A DNA stretch of 64,000 bases, from contig JACQFZ010000050.1 in NCBI GenBank assembly GCA_016199745.1, forward strand, positions 1-64,000, read 5' to 3'. The position numbers and the translations under genes were made by a program. The notes under the pieces were generated by a model, which saw only the letters and a list, made by a program, of their open reading frames with translations, did no database searches and was not told where the DNA came from. The stretch comes from Gammaproteobacteria bacterium (GTDB lineage Bacteria; Pseudomonadota; Gammaproteobacteria; Acidiferrobacterales; Sulfurifustaceae). Below are positions 10,614-54,652 of this stretch, one piece after another (position 1 is the first letter of the stretch; each line of letters begins with the position of its first letter).

Positions 10614-11081
10614 CTAACGCCGCGCGCGAAAAAACGCCGACAACTTCTGGCTGCACAACTCGCCGAGCACACCGCCCTCCACCACCGCTCGGTGATTGAG
10701 CGCATCCGACTGCAACAAGTTGTAAACCGTACCGGCGGCGCCTGCGCGCGGATCGGTCGCGCCATACACCACGCGCACGACGCGCGCATGGATGATGGCG
10801 CCGGCACACATGGGACAAGGTTCGAGCGTGACGTACAGCGTGCTGCCGGTCAGCCGATAATTGCGTAATCCCGAGGCGGCGCTGCGCAGTGCGACAATTT
10901 CTGCATGTGCCGTCGGATCGTTCGTCGAAATCGGTCGATTCCAACCTTCGCCGATCACATCGCCGTCCAACACCAGCACGGCGCCGACCGGCACTTCCCC
11001 TGCCGCTTCGGCACGCTCGGCCAGCTCCAACGCGCGTTGCATCCAACGCTGGTCGTCGGCCAGGGTCGGCGTCATTCCCAT
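10614..11081 (-). CDS. tadA: tRNA-specific adenosine deaminase TadA
   Basis: A 155-residue cytidine-deaminase fold protein with zinc and catalytic motifs H59-A-E61 and P-C89-P-M-C92. It converts adenosine 34 to inosine in the anticodon of tRNA-Arg(ACG), allowing wobble decoding. The start is either ATG 11081 or ATG 11075; the latter gives an ATGA overlap with the guaA stop. Coupling to guaA is common in Gammaproteobacteria. Confidence 0.96.
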
Positions 11082-12646
11082 TCGATGGTCGCCGGCGGCT
11101 TGCCGGAGATGTCGTAGACGACGCGCGACACATTGCTCACTTCATTGATGATGCGGTTGGAGACGTTGGCCAATACTTCGTACGGCAGATGCGCCCAGGT
11201 GGCGGTCATGAAATCCACGGTCTCGACCGCGCGCAGCGCGATAACGTATTCATAAGCGCGCGCATCACCGAGCACCGCCACCGACTTCACCGGTAGAAAC
11301 ACCGCGAACGCCTGGCTGGTGCGCTCGTACAGCTCGTTGCGATACAGCTCTTCGAGGAAGATCACGTCGGCACGCCGCAGAATATCGGCGTACTCTTTTT
11401 TTACTTCGCCGAGAATGCGCACGCCGAGGCCCGGCCCCGGGAACGGATGCCGATAAATCATTTGGTGCGGCAAGCCGAGTTCTTCGCCGATGCGCCGTAC
11501 TTCATCTTTAAACAGCTCGCGCAGCGGTTCGAGCAGTTTCAACTTCATCCGCTCGGGCAAACCGCCGACGTTGTGATGCGACTTGATGACATGCGCCTTG
11601 TTGATCTTCGCCGCCGCCGATTCGATGACGTCAGGATAGATCGTACCCTGCGCCAACCACTTGGCGTTTTTGATCTTGTGCGATTCTGCCTCGAAGATTT
11701 CGATGAACACCCGGCCGATGATCTTGCGCTTCTGCTCCGGGTCGGACACGCCTTTCAGCGCCGACAAAAATTGTTCTTCGGCATTGACGCGGATGACCTT
11801 CACGCCCATGTGCTCAGCGAAGGTCGCCATGACTTGATCGCCTTCGTTCAACCGCAACAAGCCGTTGTCGACGAAGATGCAGGTCAACTGCTTGCCGATC
11901 GCCCGATGCAACAGCGCCGCCACTACCGATGAATCGACGCCGCCGGAAAGACCGAGAATGACTTCGTCCGTGCCGACTTGCGTGCGTACGCTGTCGATCA
12001 TGTTGTCGGCGATATTGCTCGGCGTCCAAAGCGCGGCACAACCGCAGATGTCGTGCACGAAACGTTGCAGAATCGCCCGGCCCTGAGTCGTGTGCGTGAC
12101 TTCCGGATGGAACTGCACGCCATAAAAACCGCGCGCTTCATCGGCGATACCGGCGAACGGCGCATGCTCGCTGGCGGCAATAACCTTGAACCCTGGCGGC
12201 AATGCGGTCACGCGATCGCCATGACTCATCCACACGTGCAGGTATTCGGCGCCGCTCACCTCCGCTTCATCGCGGATCGATTTGAACAGCTTCGAGTGCC
12301 CATGCATCCGCACCCGCGCATAGCCAAACTCGCGTTTGTCGGAGCTCTCGACCTTGCCGCCGAGCTGCGCCGCCATCGTCTGTTGCCCGTAACAAATGCC
12401 CAACACCGGCACGCCCAGCTGAAATACCTCCGCCGGTGCCCGCGGCGTATCGGCGGCCGTCACTGTCTCCGGCCCGCCCGACAGAATTACGCCGCGCGGT
12501 GCAAACCGGCGGATTTCTTCTACCGGCATATCGAACGGGTGCAGCTCACAATAAACCCCCGCCTCGCGCACGCGACGGGCGATTAACTGAGAATATTGGG
12601 CGCCAAAATCGAGGATAAGAATTTTCTGCGAATGCGGATCGGTCAT
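11072..12646 (-). CDS. guaA: GMP synthase (glutamine-hydrolysing)
   Basis: A 524-residue protein. The class I glutamine amidotransferase domain carries Cys85 in GICYGQQ and the partners FHPEV. The ATP-pyrophosphatase domain has the P-loop [13 protein letters not shown]. The C-terminal dimerisation domain ends KPPATIEWE. It aminates XMP to GMP. guaB is not next to it in the window: the upstream 295 bp contain only a small repeat at 12763. It overlaps tadA downstream. Confidence 0.98.
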
Positions 12647-12762
12647 AGCGGAGATGAGGTTAGCTCGTCAAAAACACCAGGAACGCAATGATAATTGAGT
12701 CCGGCGCTGATTTCTCTGGCTGGTTTAGGGAATTATTTATTGACGGAGCCAAACGCAGGATT

Positions 12763-12786
12763 CCCTCTCCCCTTGCGGGAGAGGGA
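12763..12786. repeat. CCCTCTCC/GGAGAGGG hairpin (dispersed family copy 1)
   Basis: Inverted repeat CCCTCTCC...GGAGAGGG in the guaA upstream intergenic region. The same short palindrome family recurs at 41350-41380, 41425-41450, 45046-45072, 47704-47728 and 51241-51270, always outside genes. Confidence 0.7.
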
Positions 12787-12941
12787 CAGGGAGAGGGGGA
12801 ACCTACTATCTATTTCTAAATTTACCCAGCTCCCACCAGGGGAGGGCCAACATGGCATTTACGCCCCCCGCCGCGACTCAACCTTGACCCACCCTTCCAT
12901 AGGCGTATCGAACGCTTTGTAGGATCAGGTGTTTCTGTAAA

Positions 12942-14426
12942 TTAAATACTTACCTCAATGCGTTCTTCGCGCGCGTTTTGTCCAGCGCTGGCGAGCGGCG
13001 CAGTAACACCCACTCGATCCATCGAATCCAAAGTCGTAACCAGGAAACGAAAGCAGAGACAGCCATCGCCGATCCGGCAATGCTGTACTGCAGCCAGCGT
13101 GCGTGTGCATAGTGCGGACGACGGAGCAACAGCGCCGACAAACCACAACCGCGTCATCAAGCGGTGTCCGGCCGGGCGGATGCCATAGTCCCAGTAACGC
13201 GCGATAACCAGCCCGAGCGCCGCCGCGACCCAACCGCCGGCCGCACCGATCAACACATCGGACGGCCAATGTACCCCGACAGCAATGCGGGAAAACGCCA
13301 CCAGACTACCGACACCCACCAGCAACAGGCGCGAATAACGCATTGGCACATATGCTACGCACACACCGGCCAGGGCGATGTCGCACGTTTGGCAGCGTAT
13401 GCCATTAACAAAAACAACGGTGTCGCCCCGTAAAGCAAGTAATGCGGTAGTTGAGTCGCCGATAACGAGAAAAATACGAACACCACGCCGAACCACAACC
13501 ACAGAAACATCACTCATGGTTGACGGAACACCTGGCGATTGCGCAGTAGCGCACGCACCAACAACATCGAGTACGGCAACAAAATCAGCGGCAACGCAGC
13601 GAAACGGTCGGGTACCGATCGATTCGCCCAACAAGAACTTTACGTAGCCGAGGTACGCGAGAATCGACGTTCCCATTGTGCCAAGGACGATGCCGACACC
13701 GCCGAAAAAGTGTCCGGGACGTGCACGAAAACGCAGGAAGAAGTACATCGCCAGCAGATCCAGCAATACCCGGAAGGTACGCGTGATGCCGTATTTTGAA
13801 CGACCAAAACTGCGCGCCCGGTGATTCACCACTTCTTCACCAATGCGCCGCGGCGAGGTGACAGTAATGATCCACGTAGGGATGAAACGATGCATTTCAC
13901 CGTAAAGGCGCACGCGCTTCGCCACCGATGCGCGCAACACTTTGAGCGTGCAACCGTAATCGTGTACGCGCACGCCGGTTAAGCGACCGATCAAGAAATT
14001 GGCGACACGCGACGGCGCGCGCCGCAACCACAAGCCGTCACGGCGGTGGCGCCGCCAACCAACGAGCAAATCCAAATCCTCACGCAGCAACCGTTCGACC
14101 AAGCGCGGAATGTCGCCTGGATCGTTCTGTAAATCGCCATCGAGGATCGCGATGACGTCGCCGCGCGCCGCGTCGATACCCGCCTGCATCGCCGCAGTCT
14201 GACCGAAGTTGCGCTCAAGCTCGATGATGCGCACGTGCTCGCCGTAGCGACGGCGCGCAATCGTTAGTCGCGCGAGTGTGTCGTCGCTGCTGCCGTCATC
14301 GATCACAATCAGCTCCCACGGCACATCACAGTTGGCGAGTGCCGCATGAATGCATTCCAGCATCGGCGCGACGTTCTCGGCTTCGTCGAACATCGGCACA
14401 ACAACGCTCAGGCGAGCACGACTCAT
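12942..14426 (-). CDS. GT2 glycosyltransferase (ArnC/DPM1-like), truncated and fused by read-through to unrelated remnants
   Basis: Residues 1 to about 274 are a polyprenyl-phosphate glycosyltransferase: VVVPMFDEAENV, DDGSSDDT, FGQTAAMQAG, DGDLQNDPGDIP, and two C-terminal membrane segments ending GESIGTRP. Such enzymes transfer a sugar to undecaprenyl phosphate for lipid A or O-antigen modification. After residue 274 the reading frame no longer looks like protein. Shifting frame gives an ArnT-like fragment (13358-13610), after which the original frame resumes as a PAP2 fragment. The 494-residue frame is therefore probably an artefact of decay with a real GT2 N-terminus. Whether the GT2 part is still active is unknown. 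Confidence 0.7.
   Translation of the reverse strand: MSRARLSVVVPMFDEAENVAPMLECIHAALANCDVPWELIVIDDGSSDDTLARLTIARRRYGEHVRIIELERNFGQTAAMQAGIDAARGDVIAILDGDLQNDPGDIPRLVERLLREDLDLLVGWRRHRRDGLWLRRAPSRVANFLIGRLTGVRVHDYGCTLKVLRASVAKRVRLYGEMHRFIPTWIITVTSPRRIGEEVVNHRARSFGRSKYGITRTFRVLLDLLAMYFFLRFRARPGHFFGGVGIVLGTMGTSILAYLGYVKFLLGESIGTRPFRCVAADFVAVLDVVGACATAQSPGVPSTMSDVSVVVVRRGVRIFLVIGDSTTALLALRGDTVVFVNGIRCQTCDIALAGVCVAYVPMRYSRLLLVGVGSLVAFSRIAVGVHWPSDVLIGAAGGWVAAALGLVIARYWDYGIRPAGHRLMTRLWFVGAVAPSSALCTRTLAAVQHCRIGDGCLCFRFLVTTLDSMDRVGVTAPLASAGQNAREERIEVSI
12950..13357 (-). pseudogene. PAP2-family phosphatase C-terminal remnant with frameshift
   Basis: The motif SRIAVGVHWPSDVLIG is the third PAP2 signature (SR-x5-H-x3-D), but signatures one and two are absent. 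Near 13140 the sensible frame changes: one base over, the continuation is LSALLLRRPHY, then a hydrophobic stretch with WLRLWIRWIEW and a stop at 12950-12952, while the annotated frame turns to unconvincing sequence. It is most simply a decayed lipid phosphatase gene. Confidence 0.55.
13358..13610 (-). pseudogene. ArnT/GT83-type glycosyltransferase C-terminal remnant
   Basis: One base out of frame with the surrounding ORF, this stretch encodes RFAALPLILLPYSMLLVRAL, an in-frame TGA at 13514-13516, then MFLWLWFGVVFVFFSLSATQ followed by LPHYLLYGATPLFLLMA. The pattern FFS-x-LP-x-Y-x-L-x4-P-L-x-LL is characteristic of ArnT and related GT83 membrane glycosyltransferases. The N-terminal catalytic part is missing. 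The fragment lies between the GT2 and PAP2 pieces, so a larger lipid-modification locus appears to have collapsed here. Confidence 0.6.
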
Positions 14427-14970
14427 ACGCGCACCGGCGGCAAATTGAGACTAAAACTACGGACATGTATTGCGCAGAAATACCGGAGAAACTGCCGGTA
14501 CAGCGAGATACGGAAATTTGGCAACCCGGCAATGAATGCGACAAAAATTGCGACACTCGTCAGCCAACGCCATGCTGCAGCGCTGGCTGCCATCGTCATA
14601 CTGCTTTTCGAAAAACGTTCATGGCACGTAACGATGACAGATCGCGCGTCATGACTCTAATCGGAGTTGTGTGGGCGGAGCCTCTCTATTGTTTGATAAC
14701 CTACATAGTGATCGTAAGAGTTATTTTTTTATCCGATGCTATTTAAAAATTCGAATGAACAAATGTTTCAAATTTATTGCGTCTCTTCACAATGACGTCT
14801 TCGTGACAAACGCTGCTGGCAAAATTCGGAGCGAGTTGGCCTGAAAGAATAATGGACTTACGACAGCTCATCAGGAGCTGAACCGCTATTCAATGCAGGC
14901 TGTTCTTCTATGAAAAAAATTTGTTACTATGCGGCGGCTTTTCATCATACTCAAAATAAGGAGTTAAGAA
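14427..14970. other. intergenic region, no supported gene
   Basis: 544 bp with an AT-rich centre (about 14700-14780). Only short unconvincing frames are present. It must contain the promoters for the divergent GT2 gene and the Cys-rich protein gene; TACTAT near 14925 is a possible -10 box for the latter. I see no RNA gene or repeat. Confidence 0.4.
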
Positions 14971-15333
14971 ATGAAACGGATGTCGTTATTGTTGTTCGCC
15001 ACCACTGTCATTTTTTCCGTCAGCACCGTACAGGCAGAAGAAAAAACCGATTGCGCCGTGAAATACACGCGCACGGCATGCCCCGGCAAGGAAGCAGAAA
15101 GCTACAAGAAGTGCGACGGGAAAAAATCCTGTACTCAATACAAGCCGGCAAGTTCGGCAGAAGAATGCCAAGCGGCGGCGCTCAAAGCCTGTGCTAACGA
15201 CAGGCTAGATATCACCAAGAGCAAGGTGATAAACGCGGCCTACAAAGGCAAACCTATCAAGTCGACATCAGGCAAAGACGATTTCTGCGTTGACTATCCG
15301 AATAGAAGTACCGAGTTTGACAAGTGTTCTTAA
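14971..15333 (+). CDS. small secreted cysteine-rich protein, family not recognised
   Basis: A 120-residue protein with a clear signal peptide (MKRMSLLLFATTVIFSVSTVQA, cut after AQA-like VQA) and a strong ribosome site (AAGGAGTTAAGAA before ATG). The mature part is Lys-rich and has eight cysteines (spaced pairs such as KKCDG...KSC, EECQ...KAC), which suggests four disulfides in the periplasm. No family is recognised and no function is proposed. It is followed by a good terminator, so it is a single-gene unit. Confidence 0.8.
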   Translation: MKRMSLLLFATTVIFSVSTVQAEEKTDCAVKYTRTACPGKEAESYKKCDGKKSCTQYKPASSAEECQAAALKACANDRLDITKSKVINAAYKGKPIKSTSGKDDFCVDYPNRSTEFDKCS

Positions 15334-31803: not shown

Positions 31804-31911
31804 TGAGGAGAGAACCTAATGAATGATAAGGGCTCCCCCCTGCCCCTAACGGCATCAACGTGCCAGATTGAAGTCGGTTCAACTCAATCAACGGAACAGG
31901 AGGAGTCGGCC

Positions 31912-32090
31912 ATGAACGTTACTGCGATCGGGATTGATCTGGCAAAAAACACCTTCAGCGTGCATGCCACGGATGATCGAAGCAAAACGGTGTTTCGTAA
32001 AAATATCAGTCGCGCCAAGTTGTTACTCTTTATGGCCGAGCAACCAGCGAGTCGGATCGGTCTGGAAGCCTGTTCGGCGGCACCAATGCT
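31912..32090 (+). mobile_element. IS110/IS1111-type transposase remnant (first 60 residues)
   Basis: From the ATG at 31912 (GGAGGAG upstream) the frame encodes MNVTAIGIDLAKNTFSVHAT, then SRAKLLLFMAEQPASRIGLEAC, the N-terminus of IS110-family DEDD transposases. Similarity stops abruptly near 32090, where the 3' end of the SRPBCC gene begins on the other strand. The frame stays open to 32313, but only antisense to that gene. The catalytic Ser domain is missing, so it is inactive. Confidence 0.82.
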
Positions 32091-32535
32091 AGCCGGGAAT
32101 CTCGGCTTCGACGAGTTGCGCGAGAAGAATGAGCGATTCTTGCCAACCGAGATAGCAAGCCTCGGCCGGAATGGCTGCCGGTATCCCTTCTTGGACGATG
32201 TTCACGTCAGTACCGCAAAAAACTTTCTTCAACGATATCGTCGTCTGCATTTCTCCGGGCAAGTTCGGGTCGTCGAATTTGTCGGTGTGACGGATTCGTT
32301 CGTTGGGTACTAGTTCTAGATACTTTCCGCCGAACGAGTGGCTGTGGCCGGTGGTGAAGTTGGTGAATGACATCTTAAAGCTACCGCCGACTTTCGGATC
32401 TATTTGGTGAATCTTTCCGGTAAAACCATTCGGTGGAAGCCACTTGGCCAAGGCGTCGGCATCGAGAAACGCCCGATAGATTCTCTCTGGGGTAGCACGG
32501 AGTACACGGTGAAGCTGGACGGCATTTGTGAGCAT
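32089..32535 (-). CDS. SRPBCC/AHSA1-domain protein
   Basis: A 148-residue START-like fold with the family pattern TPERIYRAFLDADALAKWLPP, VGGSFKMSFTNF, GKYLELVPNERIRHTDKF and a C-terminal GWQESLILLAQLVE. Such proteins bind hydrophobic ligands or act with transcription factors; nothing specific can be inferred. It has a good GAGAGGTGA ribosome site. It abuts the IS110 remnant tail to tail. Confidence 0.85.
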   Translation of the reverse strand: MLTNAVQLHRVLRATPERIYRAFLDADALAKWLPPNGFTGKIHQIDPKVGGSFKMSFTNFTTGHSHSFGGKYLELVPNERIRHTDKFDDPNLPGEMQTTISLKKVFCGTDVNIVQEGIPAAIPAEACYLGWQESLILLAQLVEAEIPG

Positions 32536-41349: not shown

Positions 41350-41450
41350 CCCTCTCCCCCGAATTTTTCGGGGGAGAGGGGGACGTTTCTACAGAGGCGC
41401 GGTTCCACGCGCCCCTCTCCCTAACCCTCTCCCCGCAAGCGGGGAGAGGG
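41350..41450. repeat. two CCCTCTCC hairpins after yaiI (dispersed family copies 2 and 3)
   Basis: Hairpin one: arms of 14 bp at 41350-41363 and 41367-41380 with a TTT loop. Hairpin two: CCCTCTCCCCGC at 41425-41436 with GCGGGGAGAGGG at 41439-41450. They lie between the convergent genes yaiI and choX. Confidence 0.75.
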
Positions 41451-54047: not shown

Positions 54048-54652
54048 GAGGTCACTCCAACTGCGAAACGCTTCAAACTATGTTGCAAGTCGCCGTAACC
54101 GGTACAGCGGTGCTCGAAGCTTAAGCCCAACTGCTCGGCCGCCGCGCGCGCTGCCAGCACCAGCTCCGGGGATTCCACCTGCGCCAGATATACCAACCGC
54201 CGGTAGTTGCCGAAGTACTGCTTGGCGAGCTCGGGATGACGATCGAGCCCGAGACCGCGAATCACCAAACGATCGAAGTGACGGGCGAGAAAATCGGTGA
54301 GATAAAACGTGCCGGGCTCGGCCTCGTGCAGCGCGTCGAACGTCGTGTGGGTCGCGAAAAATTCGTAGCAGTGAGCGCCGGGAATACGCTCGACCCGCTC
54401 CTCGATCAGCACCGCGTCAAGCATGCCGCCGGTACCGCAATCGCCGTAGGCCACGAAGATCGCGGCGTAGCGGTCACGGTTCTCCTGGATCTTGGCGCGC
54501 ACCGCCTCAGGGATCTGATTCGGCGTGTTGTGCAACTCCGCCGGCAGGCACTGCACGTCGATGTGCGGCCAACCATTGATCTTGCGCAGCGCGATGATCT
54601 CGTGCGCCAGCGCACCGCAGGCGATCACGAGTGCCGTTGCTTCGGTACCCAT
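54035..54652 (-). CDS. DUF1638 protein, function unknown
   Basis: A 205-residue protein with conserved-looking blocks ALVIACGALAHEI, CLPAELHNTPNQIPEAV, FVAYGDCGTGGMLDAV, GAHCYEFFATHTTF and RCTGYGDLQHSL. Several cysteines and histidines (CGAL, GDCGTGG, HCYEF) suggest a metal or cofactor site. DUF1638 is linked to corrinoid methyl transfer by gene neighbourhood in bacteria and methanogens. It lies between the corrinoid protein and the small accessory protein in one operon. Confidence 0.82.
   Translation of the reverse strand: MGTEATALVIACGALAHEIIALRKINGWPHIDVQCLPAELHNTPNQIPEAVRAKIQENRDRYAAIFVAYGDCGTGGMLDAVLIEERVERIPGAHCYEFFATHTTFDALHEAEPGTFYLTDFLARHFDRLVIRGLGLDRHPELAKQYFGNYRRLVYLAQVESPELVLAARAAAEQLGLSFEHRCTGYGDLQHSLKRFAVGVTSWQN

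What the first reader, a model, noticed from the sequence alone, without database searches (positions are those of the whole stretch)
12942..14426. One 494-codon ORF that is really three broken lipid-glycosylation genes
The GT2 part stops making sense after GESIGTRP (13605). One base over, the DNA encodes an ArnT/GT83-like C-terminus (VFFSLSATQLPHYLLY) with an internal TGA. Then the first frame resumes as the last third of a PAP2 phosphatase (SRIAVGVHWPSD), which itself frameshifts near 13140. GC-rich DNA lacks stops, so automated calling gives a false single protein. It records loss of a lipid A or O-antigen modification locus.
Basis: seen in the sequence. Interest (0 to 1): 0.55.

Follow-up and report, generated by a model that had tools for sequence, protein, structure and literature searches.

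The report
Wrecked three-gene lipid-sugar operon remnant
What looks like one long protein gene is really the leftover pieces of three neighbouring membrane-sugar-transfer genes, squeezed together by two large deletions, so it is an ordinary gene ruin rather than a new protein.

Summary
The 494-codon ORF (12942-14426, minus) is a composite of three gene remnants. Residues 1-275 are an ArnC-like GT2 lacking its C-terminal tail. One frame over, 13597-13367 encodes about 77 residues from the middle of an ArnT-like GT83 protein, with a TGA inside. From about 13388 the first frame resumes as the C-terminal half of a PAP2 phosphatase, which probably changes frame near 13140 (the weakest step). Intact relatives exist: of 80 related loci, 35 carry GT83 just downstream of GT2 and 10 have GT2-GT83-PAP2 in that order. 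There the pieces lie about 1 kb apart; here they abut, so two ~1-kb deletions made the composite. No listed match spans the joins, and the missing GT83 parts were not found elsewhere in this genome. The other 19 family genomes held show no such GT2 (11 are under 90% complete), and the guaB-guaA neighbourhood, kept in 8 of 8 relatives checked, is broken here: probably a module acquired at a rearranged site, then lost. Sugar and acceptor are unproven. Open question: whether the well-preserved GT2 domain still acts. Ordinary pseudogene remnant; low interest.

The parts
13602..14426 (-). ArnC-like GT2 (polyprenyl-phosphate sugar synthase type) remnant, residues 1-275; C-terminal tail with the second membrane helix missing
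   Evidence: Pfam PF00535 E 4e-32; 47-68% identity to GT2 in 80 of 80 loci; homologues run to 318-361 residues from the match start in the 25 loci measured; 82 of 84 near-invariant positions kept
13597..13605 (-). Join 1: GT2 to GT83; about 1 kb missing relative to intact operons
   Evidence: GT2 residue 275 to GT83 fragment: 926-1428 nt, median 998, in 35 of 80 loci; about 7 nt in the window
13367..13597 (-). GT83/ArnT-like fragment, about 77 residues from between residues 260 and 355 of proteins of 521-559 residues, in the other frame; TGA at 13516-13514
   Evidence: tblastn of 8 intact GT83 proteins, E 4e-23 to 3e-16; own-genome search 53% identity, 1 TGA inside
13367..13388 (-). Join 2: GT83 to PAP2; about 1 kb missing relative to intact operons
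   Evidence: 957-1115 nt, median 1026.5, in 10 of 80 loci; about 0 in the window
13143..13388 (-). PAP2 phosphatase C-terminal half, first frame; keeps the SRxxxGxHWPxD block, lacks the KxxxxxxRP and PSGH blocks (block names recalled)
   Evidence: PAP2 profile 68.8 bits; Pfam PF01569 positions 62-126 of 130
12953..13141 (-). Probable PAP2 C-terminal tail in the shifted frame
   Evidence: 7.1 bits at profile 253-288, collinear; 2 of 500 shuffles as high; L052_PAP2 residues 240-271, 45%, and weakly L051_PAP2 residues 212-247, E 0.091; no Pfam PAP2 hit for this piece and no match in the 80 loci at E 0.01
11072..12646 (-). guaA, intact neighbour; guaB, within 1 kb upstream of it in 8 of 8 relatives checked, is on another contig here

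Best explanation
The ORF is a pseudogene composite: the leftovers of a GT2-GT83-PAP2 operon. In intact form the GT2 enzyme would load a sugar onto polyprenyl phosphate, a flippase would turn it over (a LPG_synthase_TM-family protein lies just upstream of GT2 in locus L041; its role is inferred), the GT83 GT-C enzyme would transfer the sugar to a periplasmic acceptor, and the PAP2 enzyme would remove a phosphate from a lipid. Here two deletions of about 1 kb removed the GT2 tail with the first half of GT83, and the end of GT83 with the first half of PAP2. A stop in GT83 and a probable frame change in PAP2 came before or after. SHOWN: the pieces, their order, frames and missing lengths. INFERRED: acquisition by transfer, loss of function, sugar and acceptor.
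For: Domain hits; three-frame reading; 8 intact GT83 and 5 intact PAP2 proteins match the pieces in order; 35 of 80 loci have GT83 downstream and 10 of 80 have GT2-GT83-PAP2, with ~1 kb at each join; shuffle control; an own-genome search with an intact GT83 finds only the fragment; at E 1e-60 no such GT2 in the other 19 family genomes held and in only 2 of the other 56 order genomes; guaB and guaA apart here; AlphaFold2 pLDDT 70 or more in all but one ten-residue block up to residue 290 (that block 67), under 50 for 296-494; the GT2 profile matches ArnC structures and a GT83 relative matches ArnT 5EZM.
Against: The ORF stays open through about 71 and 65 codons of foreign frame. In 18 window genes such shifted stretches are open in 12-22% of cases; with a one-in-three frame return this is roughly a 0.6-1.4% coincidence, although the ORF was picked for being long. 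The GT2 part shows little decay: 82 of 84 near-invariant positions kept and third-position G+C like other genes. No sister genome with the same broken copy was found, so the breaks rest on one assembly. L041_PAP2 does not support the PAP2 frame change.
Confidence: 0.9

Rival explanations
1. The breaks are assembly or sequencing errors and the organism carries an intact operon.
For: The genome is a 72-contig draft, 98.05% complete with 2.22% contamination; no second genome shows the same breaks.
Against: An intact GT83 finds nothing but the fragment in the assembly. The damage is of several kinds (two ~1-kb deletions, a stop, a probable frame change) in one place, while guaA matches its relatives over its full length and mutS, edd and zwf have long open frames (names by eye, length not compared).
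Confidence: 0.05
2. The GT2 domain is still made and active as an orphan polyprenyl-phosphate sugar synthase, anchored by its first membrane helix and a chance helix read from the wrong frame.
For: 82 of 84 near-invariant GT2 positions kept; residues 1-230 modelled at pLDDT 79 or more per block and a helix predicted at 274-296.
Against: The native second helix is gone, and the predicted helix may be imposed by the aligned homologues (block pLDDT falls to 53 at 291-300). Without its GT83 partner the product would be a dead end: a review lists arnT and gtrS, but not arnC or gtrB, among genes whose loss is expected to trap the carrier lipid (PMC12826051, passages), so selection should oppose it.
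Confidence: 0.12
3. The 494-residue protein is a selected, functional GT2-PAP2 chimera.
For: The frame is open throughout. GT2 and PAP2 do occur in one 569-residue ORF in a Competibacteraceae genome, L043.
Against: In L043 the order is PAP2 then GT2 and Pfam covers both domains nearly whole. In the window PAP2 lacks its first half, residues 276 to about 346 are out-of-frame GT83, and 296-494 model at pLDDT under 50. No orthologue among the listed matches in 59 other genomes or in the 80 loci.
Confidence: 0.03

Closest known systems
Three-component extracytoplasmic glycosylation systems (GtrA-GtrB-Gtr*; GT136 systems, PMC11127046, passages read)
   Same: A polyprenyl-phosphate sugar synthase plus a GT-C transferase; in the intact locus L041 a membrane protein upstream that could be the flippase (LPG_synthase_TM)
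   Different: GT-C part is ArnT-like; a PAP2 phosphatase gene is added; the window copy is broken and no flippase remnant was found
Arn pathway (ArnC, ArnT), L-Ara4N transfer to lipid A
   Same: GT2 profile matches ArnC structures 9BHC, 8VXH and 9HWJ (E about 1e-67); GT83 relative L057 matches ArnT 5EZM (E 1.7e-33)
   Different: Scores far below the ArnC and ArnT equivalog cut-offs: 154 (window), 189 and 192 against 529 bits; 125 and 145 against 567 bits
Rhizobial rgtE/rgtD/rgtF with lpxE/lpxF (galacturonate on lipid A; PMC7663294, passages read)
   Same: Similar kinds of enzyme: polyprenyl-phosphate sugar synthase, GT83 transferases (family recalled), PAP2-type lipid phosphatases (recalled); 58-63% GT2 identity to loci titled Rhizobium and Mesorhizobium
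   Different: Whether those loci are rgtE was not tested; no GT83-fragment match in the loci titled Rhizobium or Mesorhizobium

Membership tests
Operon type GT2-GT83-PAP2 (as in Thalassolituus, Marinobacterium, Nevskia loci) | Three consecutive same-strand genes in this order | tested here: met
   Pieces of all three in this order in the window; same order in 10 of 80 loci
Operon type GT2-GT83-PAP2 (as in Thalassolituus, Marinobacterium, Nevskia loci) | All three genes intact | tested here: not met
   GT2 lacks its tail, GT83 keeps about 77 of 521-559 residues with a TGA, PAP2 lacks its first half
ArnC (NF007986) | Score over the equivalog cut-off of 529 bits | tested here: not met
   153.9 bits for the window ORF; intact relatives L057 189 and L043 192 bits
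ArnT (NF009784) | Score over the equivalog cut-off of 567 bits | tested here: not met
   125 and 145 bits for intact relatives L041 and L057; the window holds only a fragment
PAP2 superfamily (PF01569) | Complete domain with its first conserved blocks and PSGH | tested here: not met
   Score over the Pfam cut-off (32.6 against 27.2 bits) but only profile positions 62-126 of 130 matched; similarity starts after the PSGH seen in intact relatives
Three-component glycosylation system | Flippase gene in the module | tested here: not met
   Flippase-like proteins from 6 loci have no credible hit in the window, best E 0.041 over 22 residues at 54402
Three-component glycosylation system | Sugar transfer to a periplasmic acceptor | not testable with these tools
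   Needs biochemistry

The most novel reading that the evidence does not exclude
The wreck still yields a working orphan GT2: the conserved catalytic domain is kept, a chance helix from the wrong reading frame replaces its lost membrane helix, and the cell carries a polyprenyl-phosphate sugar synthase with no transferase, a natural case of carrier-lipid sequestration or of donor re-use by another enzyme.
Probability: 0.1. Interest if true: 0.45.

Novelty: new member of a known kind. Interest (0 to 1): 0.17.

Why it matters
Mostly as an annotation caution: a long ORF with two recognisable domains would pass as a 494-residue fusion protein, though residues 276-494 (44% of it) are out-of-frame or a truncated PAP2. 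It also suggests that a GT2-GT83-PAP2 module, whose GT2 is found in only 3 of 57 genomes of this order, reached this genome and was lost at a rearrangement point. If the GT2 domain were active it would be a natural test of carrier-lipid sequestration.

Tried and rejected
Listed matches cover GT2, or in one case PAP2 (G035), not the join region. A second copy or displaced pieces: the own-genome search with an intact GT83 finds only the fragment; the one other PAP2 (C50:71409-71744) is a separate 287-residue ORF with PSGH. Flippase remnant: none found. ArnC/ArnT membership: rejected on score. A named donor by tree: the window GT2 has a long end branch (0.74, median 0.13), the nearest row by path is L038 (a Rhodocyclales MAG), no starred set holds it, the tree is of the quick kind, so no donor is claimed. 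Deletion-mediating repeats: only short repeats in 12600-15000, none tied to the joins; the lost ends are not available. Papers: searches; one search (at least 4 of 5 terms) found none; I make no wider claim that the operon is undescribed.

Of these 80, 38 have a GT83-fragment match, 35 downstream of GT2 and 3 upstream (L043, L084, L094); 42 have none, absent or too diverged. 2 of 80 are too short downstream, and PAP2 lies upstream of GT2 in 15 of 80. The PAP2 profile used 10 proteins: 9 of the 10 in-order loci (L100 left out) plus L043. The structure alignment A2 used 25 of the 80 loci. The guaB-guaA check used 8 relatives of the 11 searched for guaA. The family and order counts are at E 1e-60; 11 of the 19 other family genomes are under 90% complete.

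Full report
OBSERVATION. The 494-codon ORF at 12942-14426 (-) is real as an open frame. Pfam finds a GT2 domain at residues 7-171 (E 4e-32) and the end of a PAP2 domain at residues 352-410 (E 7.8e-8), with nothing between. With intact proteins from related loci as queries, GT2 similarity stops at 13605 for L057 and runs weakly to 13578 for L041. Eight of eight GT83 (ArnT-like) proteins match within 13597-13367 in the next frame at 45-63% identity (E 4e-23 to 3e-16), with one TGA at 13516-13514. Five of five PAP2 proteins match in the first frame, the earliest from 13388. In 300 dinucleotide shuffles the best scores were 28.9 (GT83) and 30.8 bits (PAP2), against 85.5 and 78.6 for the real DNA.

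THE PAP2 FRAME CHANGE is the weakest piece. A profile of 10 intact PAP2 proteins scores 68.8 bits on the first-frame piece (profile 170-247) and 7.1 bits on the next-frame tail (profile 253-288, collinear). 2 of 500 shuffled tails scored as high. The first-frame tail scores -2.2 bits. L052_PAP2 supports it and L051_PAP2 weakly (E 0.091), but L041_PAP2 aligns on in the first frame to 13086, Pfam finds no PAP2 in the tail alone, and the tail finds nothing in the 80 loci at E 0.01.

INTACT RELATIVES. The genome-contig scan gave 80 loci, the best of a larger, capped set. The GT2 part is 47-68% identical in them. 35 of 80 have the GT83 match 600-1600 nt downstream on the same strand; 10 of 80 have GT2-GT83-PAP2; 15 of 80 have PAP2 upstream of GT2 instead. 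In the Thalassolituus locus L041 the genes are 352, 523 and 255 codons and nearly touch. The distance from GT2 residue 275 to the GT83 piece is 926-1428 nt (median 998, 35 loci), and from that piece to the PAP2 piece 957-1115 nt (median 1026.5, 10 loci). In the window both distances are close to zero. So two ~1-kb stretches are missing. GT83 keeps about 77 residues of 521-559. PAP2 keeps roughly its second half, without the PSGH block that the intact proteins show.

ONE PROTEIN? No match spanning the joins is listed for the 59 other genomes (capped list) or the 80 loci. AlphaFold2 on the ORF as it stands gives high confidence for the GT2 domain and pLDDT under 50 for 296-494. The open frame needs some luck: shifted 71-codon stretches of 18 window genes are open in 1071 of 8890 (shift 1) or 1695 of 8890 (shift 2) cases, and 65-codon stretches in 1278 or 1989 of 8998. 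In three genes that look like permeases, 71-codon stretches are open in 7 of 1136 (shift 1) or 223 of 1136 (shift 2). With the return to the first frame (one in three) this is about a 1% event, for an ORF that was chosen because it is long.

WHERE IT CAME FROM. An intact GT83 finds only this fragment in the own genome, and the next best GT2 there has E 5.6e-9. At E 1e-60, 1 of 20 family genomes (G000 itself; 11 of the other 19 are under 90% complete) and 3 of 57 order genomes have this GT2. The two others (G031, G035) show no GT83 or PAP2 in the ~1.3 kb held downstream. guaB lies 31-905 nt upstream of guaA in 8 of 8 relatives checked, with another ORF between them in G001. In G000 guaB is on contig C56 next to an ORF that reads like xseA (name recalled), while guaA is in the window. 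The remnant therefore sits where guaB would be expected. Acquisition by transfer is the simplest reading but is inferred; repeated loss elsewhere is possible, and the tree names no donor.

HOW RECENT, AND DOES GT2 STILL WORK? The GT2 part keeps 82 of 84 positions that at least 95% of the other rows share. It ranks 17th most deviant of 81 rows, and the median number of deviations in the others is 1. Third-position G+C is 0.67-0.72 in the pieces, like guaA, mutS, edd and zwf (0.67-0.74). Either the breaks are recent or the GT2 domain is still used. The second membrane helix is replaced by out-of-frame residues that AlphaFold2 models as a helix at 274-296 with falling confidence, possibly because the aligned homologues have one there. 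A review lists arnT and gtrS, but not arnC or gtrB, among genes whose loss is expected to trap the carrier lipid (PMC12826051, passages read). By that logic an active orphan GT2 should be harmful, which favours a dead locus.

WHAT IT WORKED LIKE. In kind it resembles three-component glycosylation (PMC11127046, passages read): donor synthase, flippase, GT-C transferase, here with a PAP2 phosphatase. A LPG_synthase_TM protein lies upstream of GT2 in L041, and similar ORFs by eye in five more loci; none of the six finds a remnant in the window. Profile searches link the GT2 to ArnC structures and a GT83 relative to ArnT 5EZM, but both are far under the ArnC and ArnT cut-offs. So 'lipid A or O-antigen' is a reasonable guess, not a result. 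Rhizobial rgt genes with lpxE/lpxF are a similar toolset (PMC7663294, passages read), not tested here.

VERDICT.

Noticed in passing
L043:4269-5978 (+): A Competibacteraceae MAG holds one 569-residue ORF with a PAP2 domain (56-174) followed by an ArnC-like GT2 (from 241): a natural PAP2-GT2 fusion.
   Followed up: partly
window 11072-12646 and upstream: guaA is separated from guaB, which lies within 1 kb of it in 8 of 8 relatives checked; a rearrangement break lies upstream of guaA.
   Followed up: partly
12763-12797; 41350-41450: Palindromic CCCTCTCCC/GGGAGAGGG elements, repeat-like, one of them between guaA and the remnant.
   Followed up: no
31819-32313 (+): Short ORF that by eye begins like an IS110-type transposase and then breaks off; no Pfam hit.
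   Followed up: no
14971-15333 (+): 120-residue ORF with a signal-peptide-like start (by eye) next to the remnant; no Pfam hit.
   Followed up: no
12956-12977 and 13324-13345: 22-nt inverted repeat pair, 86% complementary, inside the PAP2 remnant; possibly chance.
   Followed up: no
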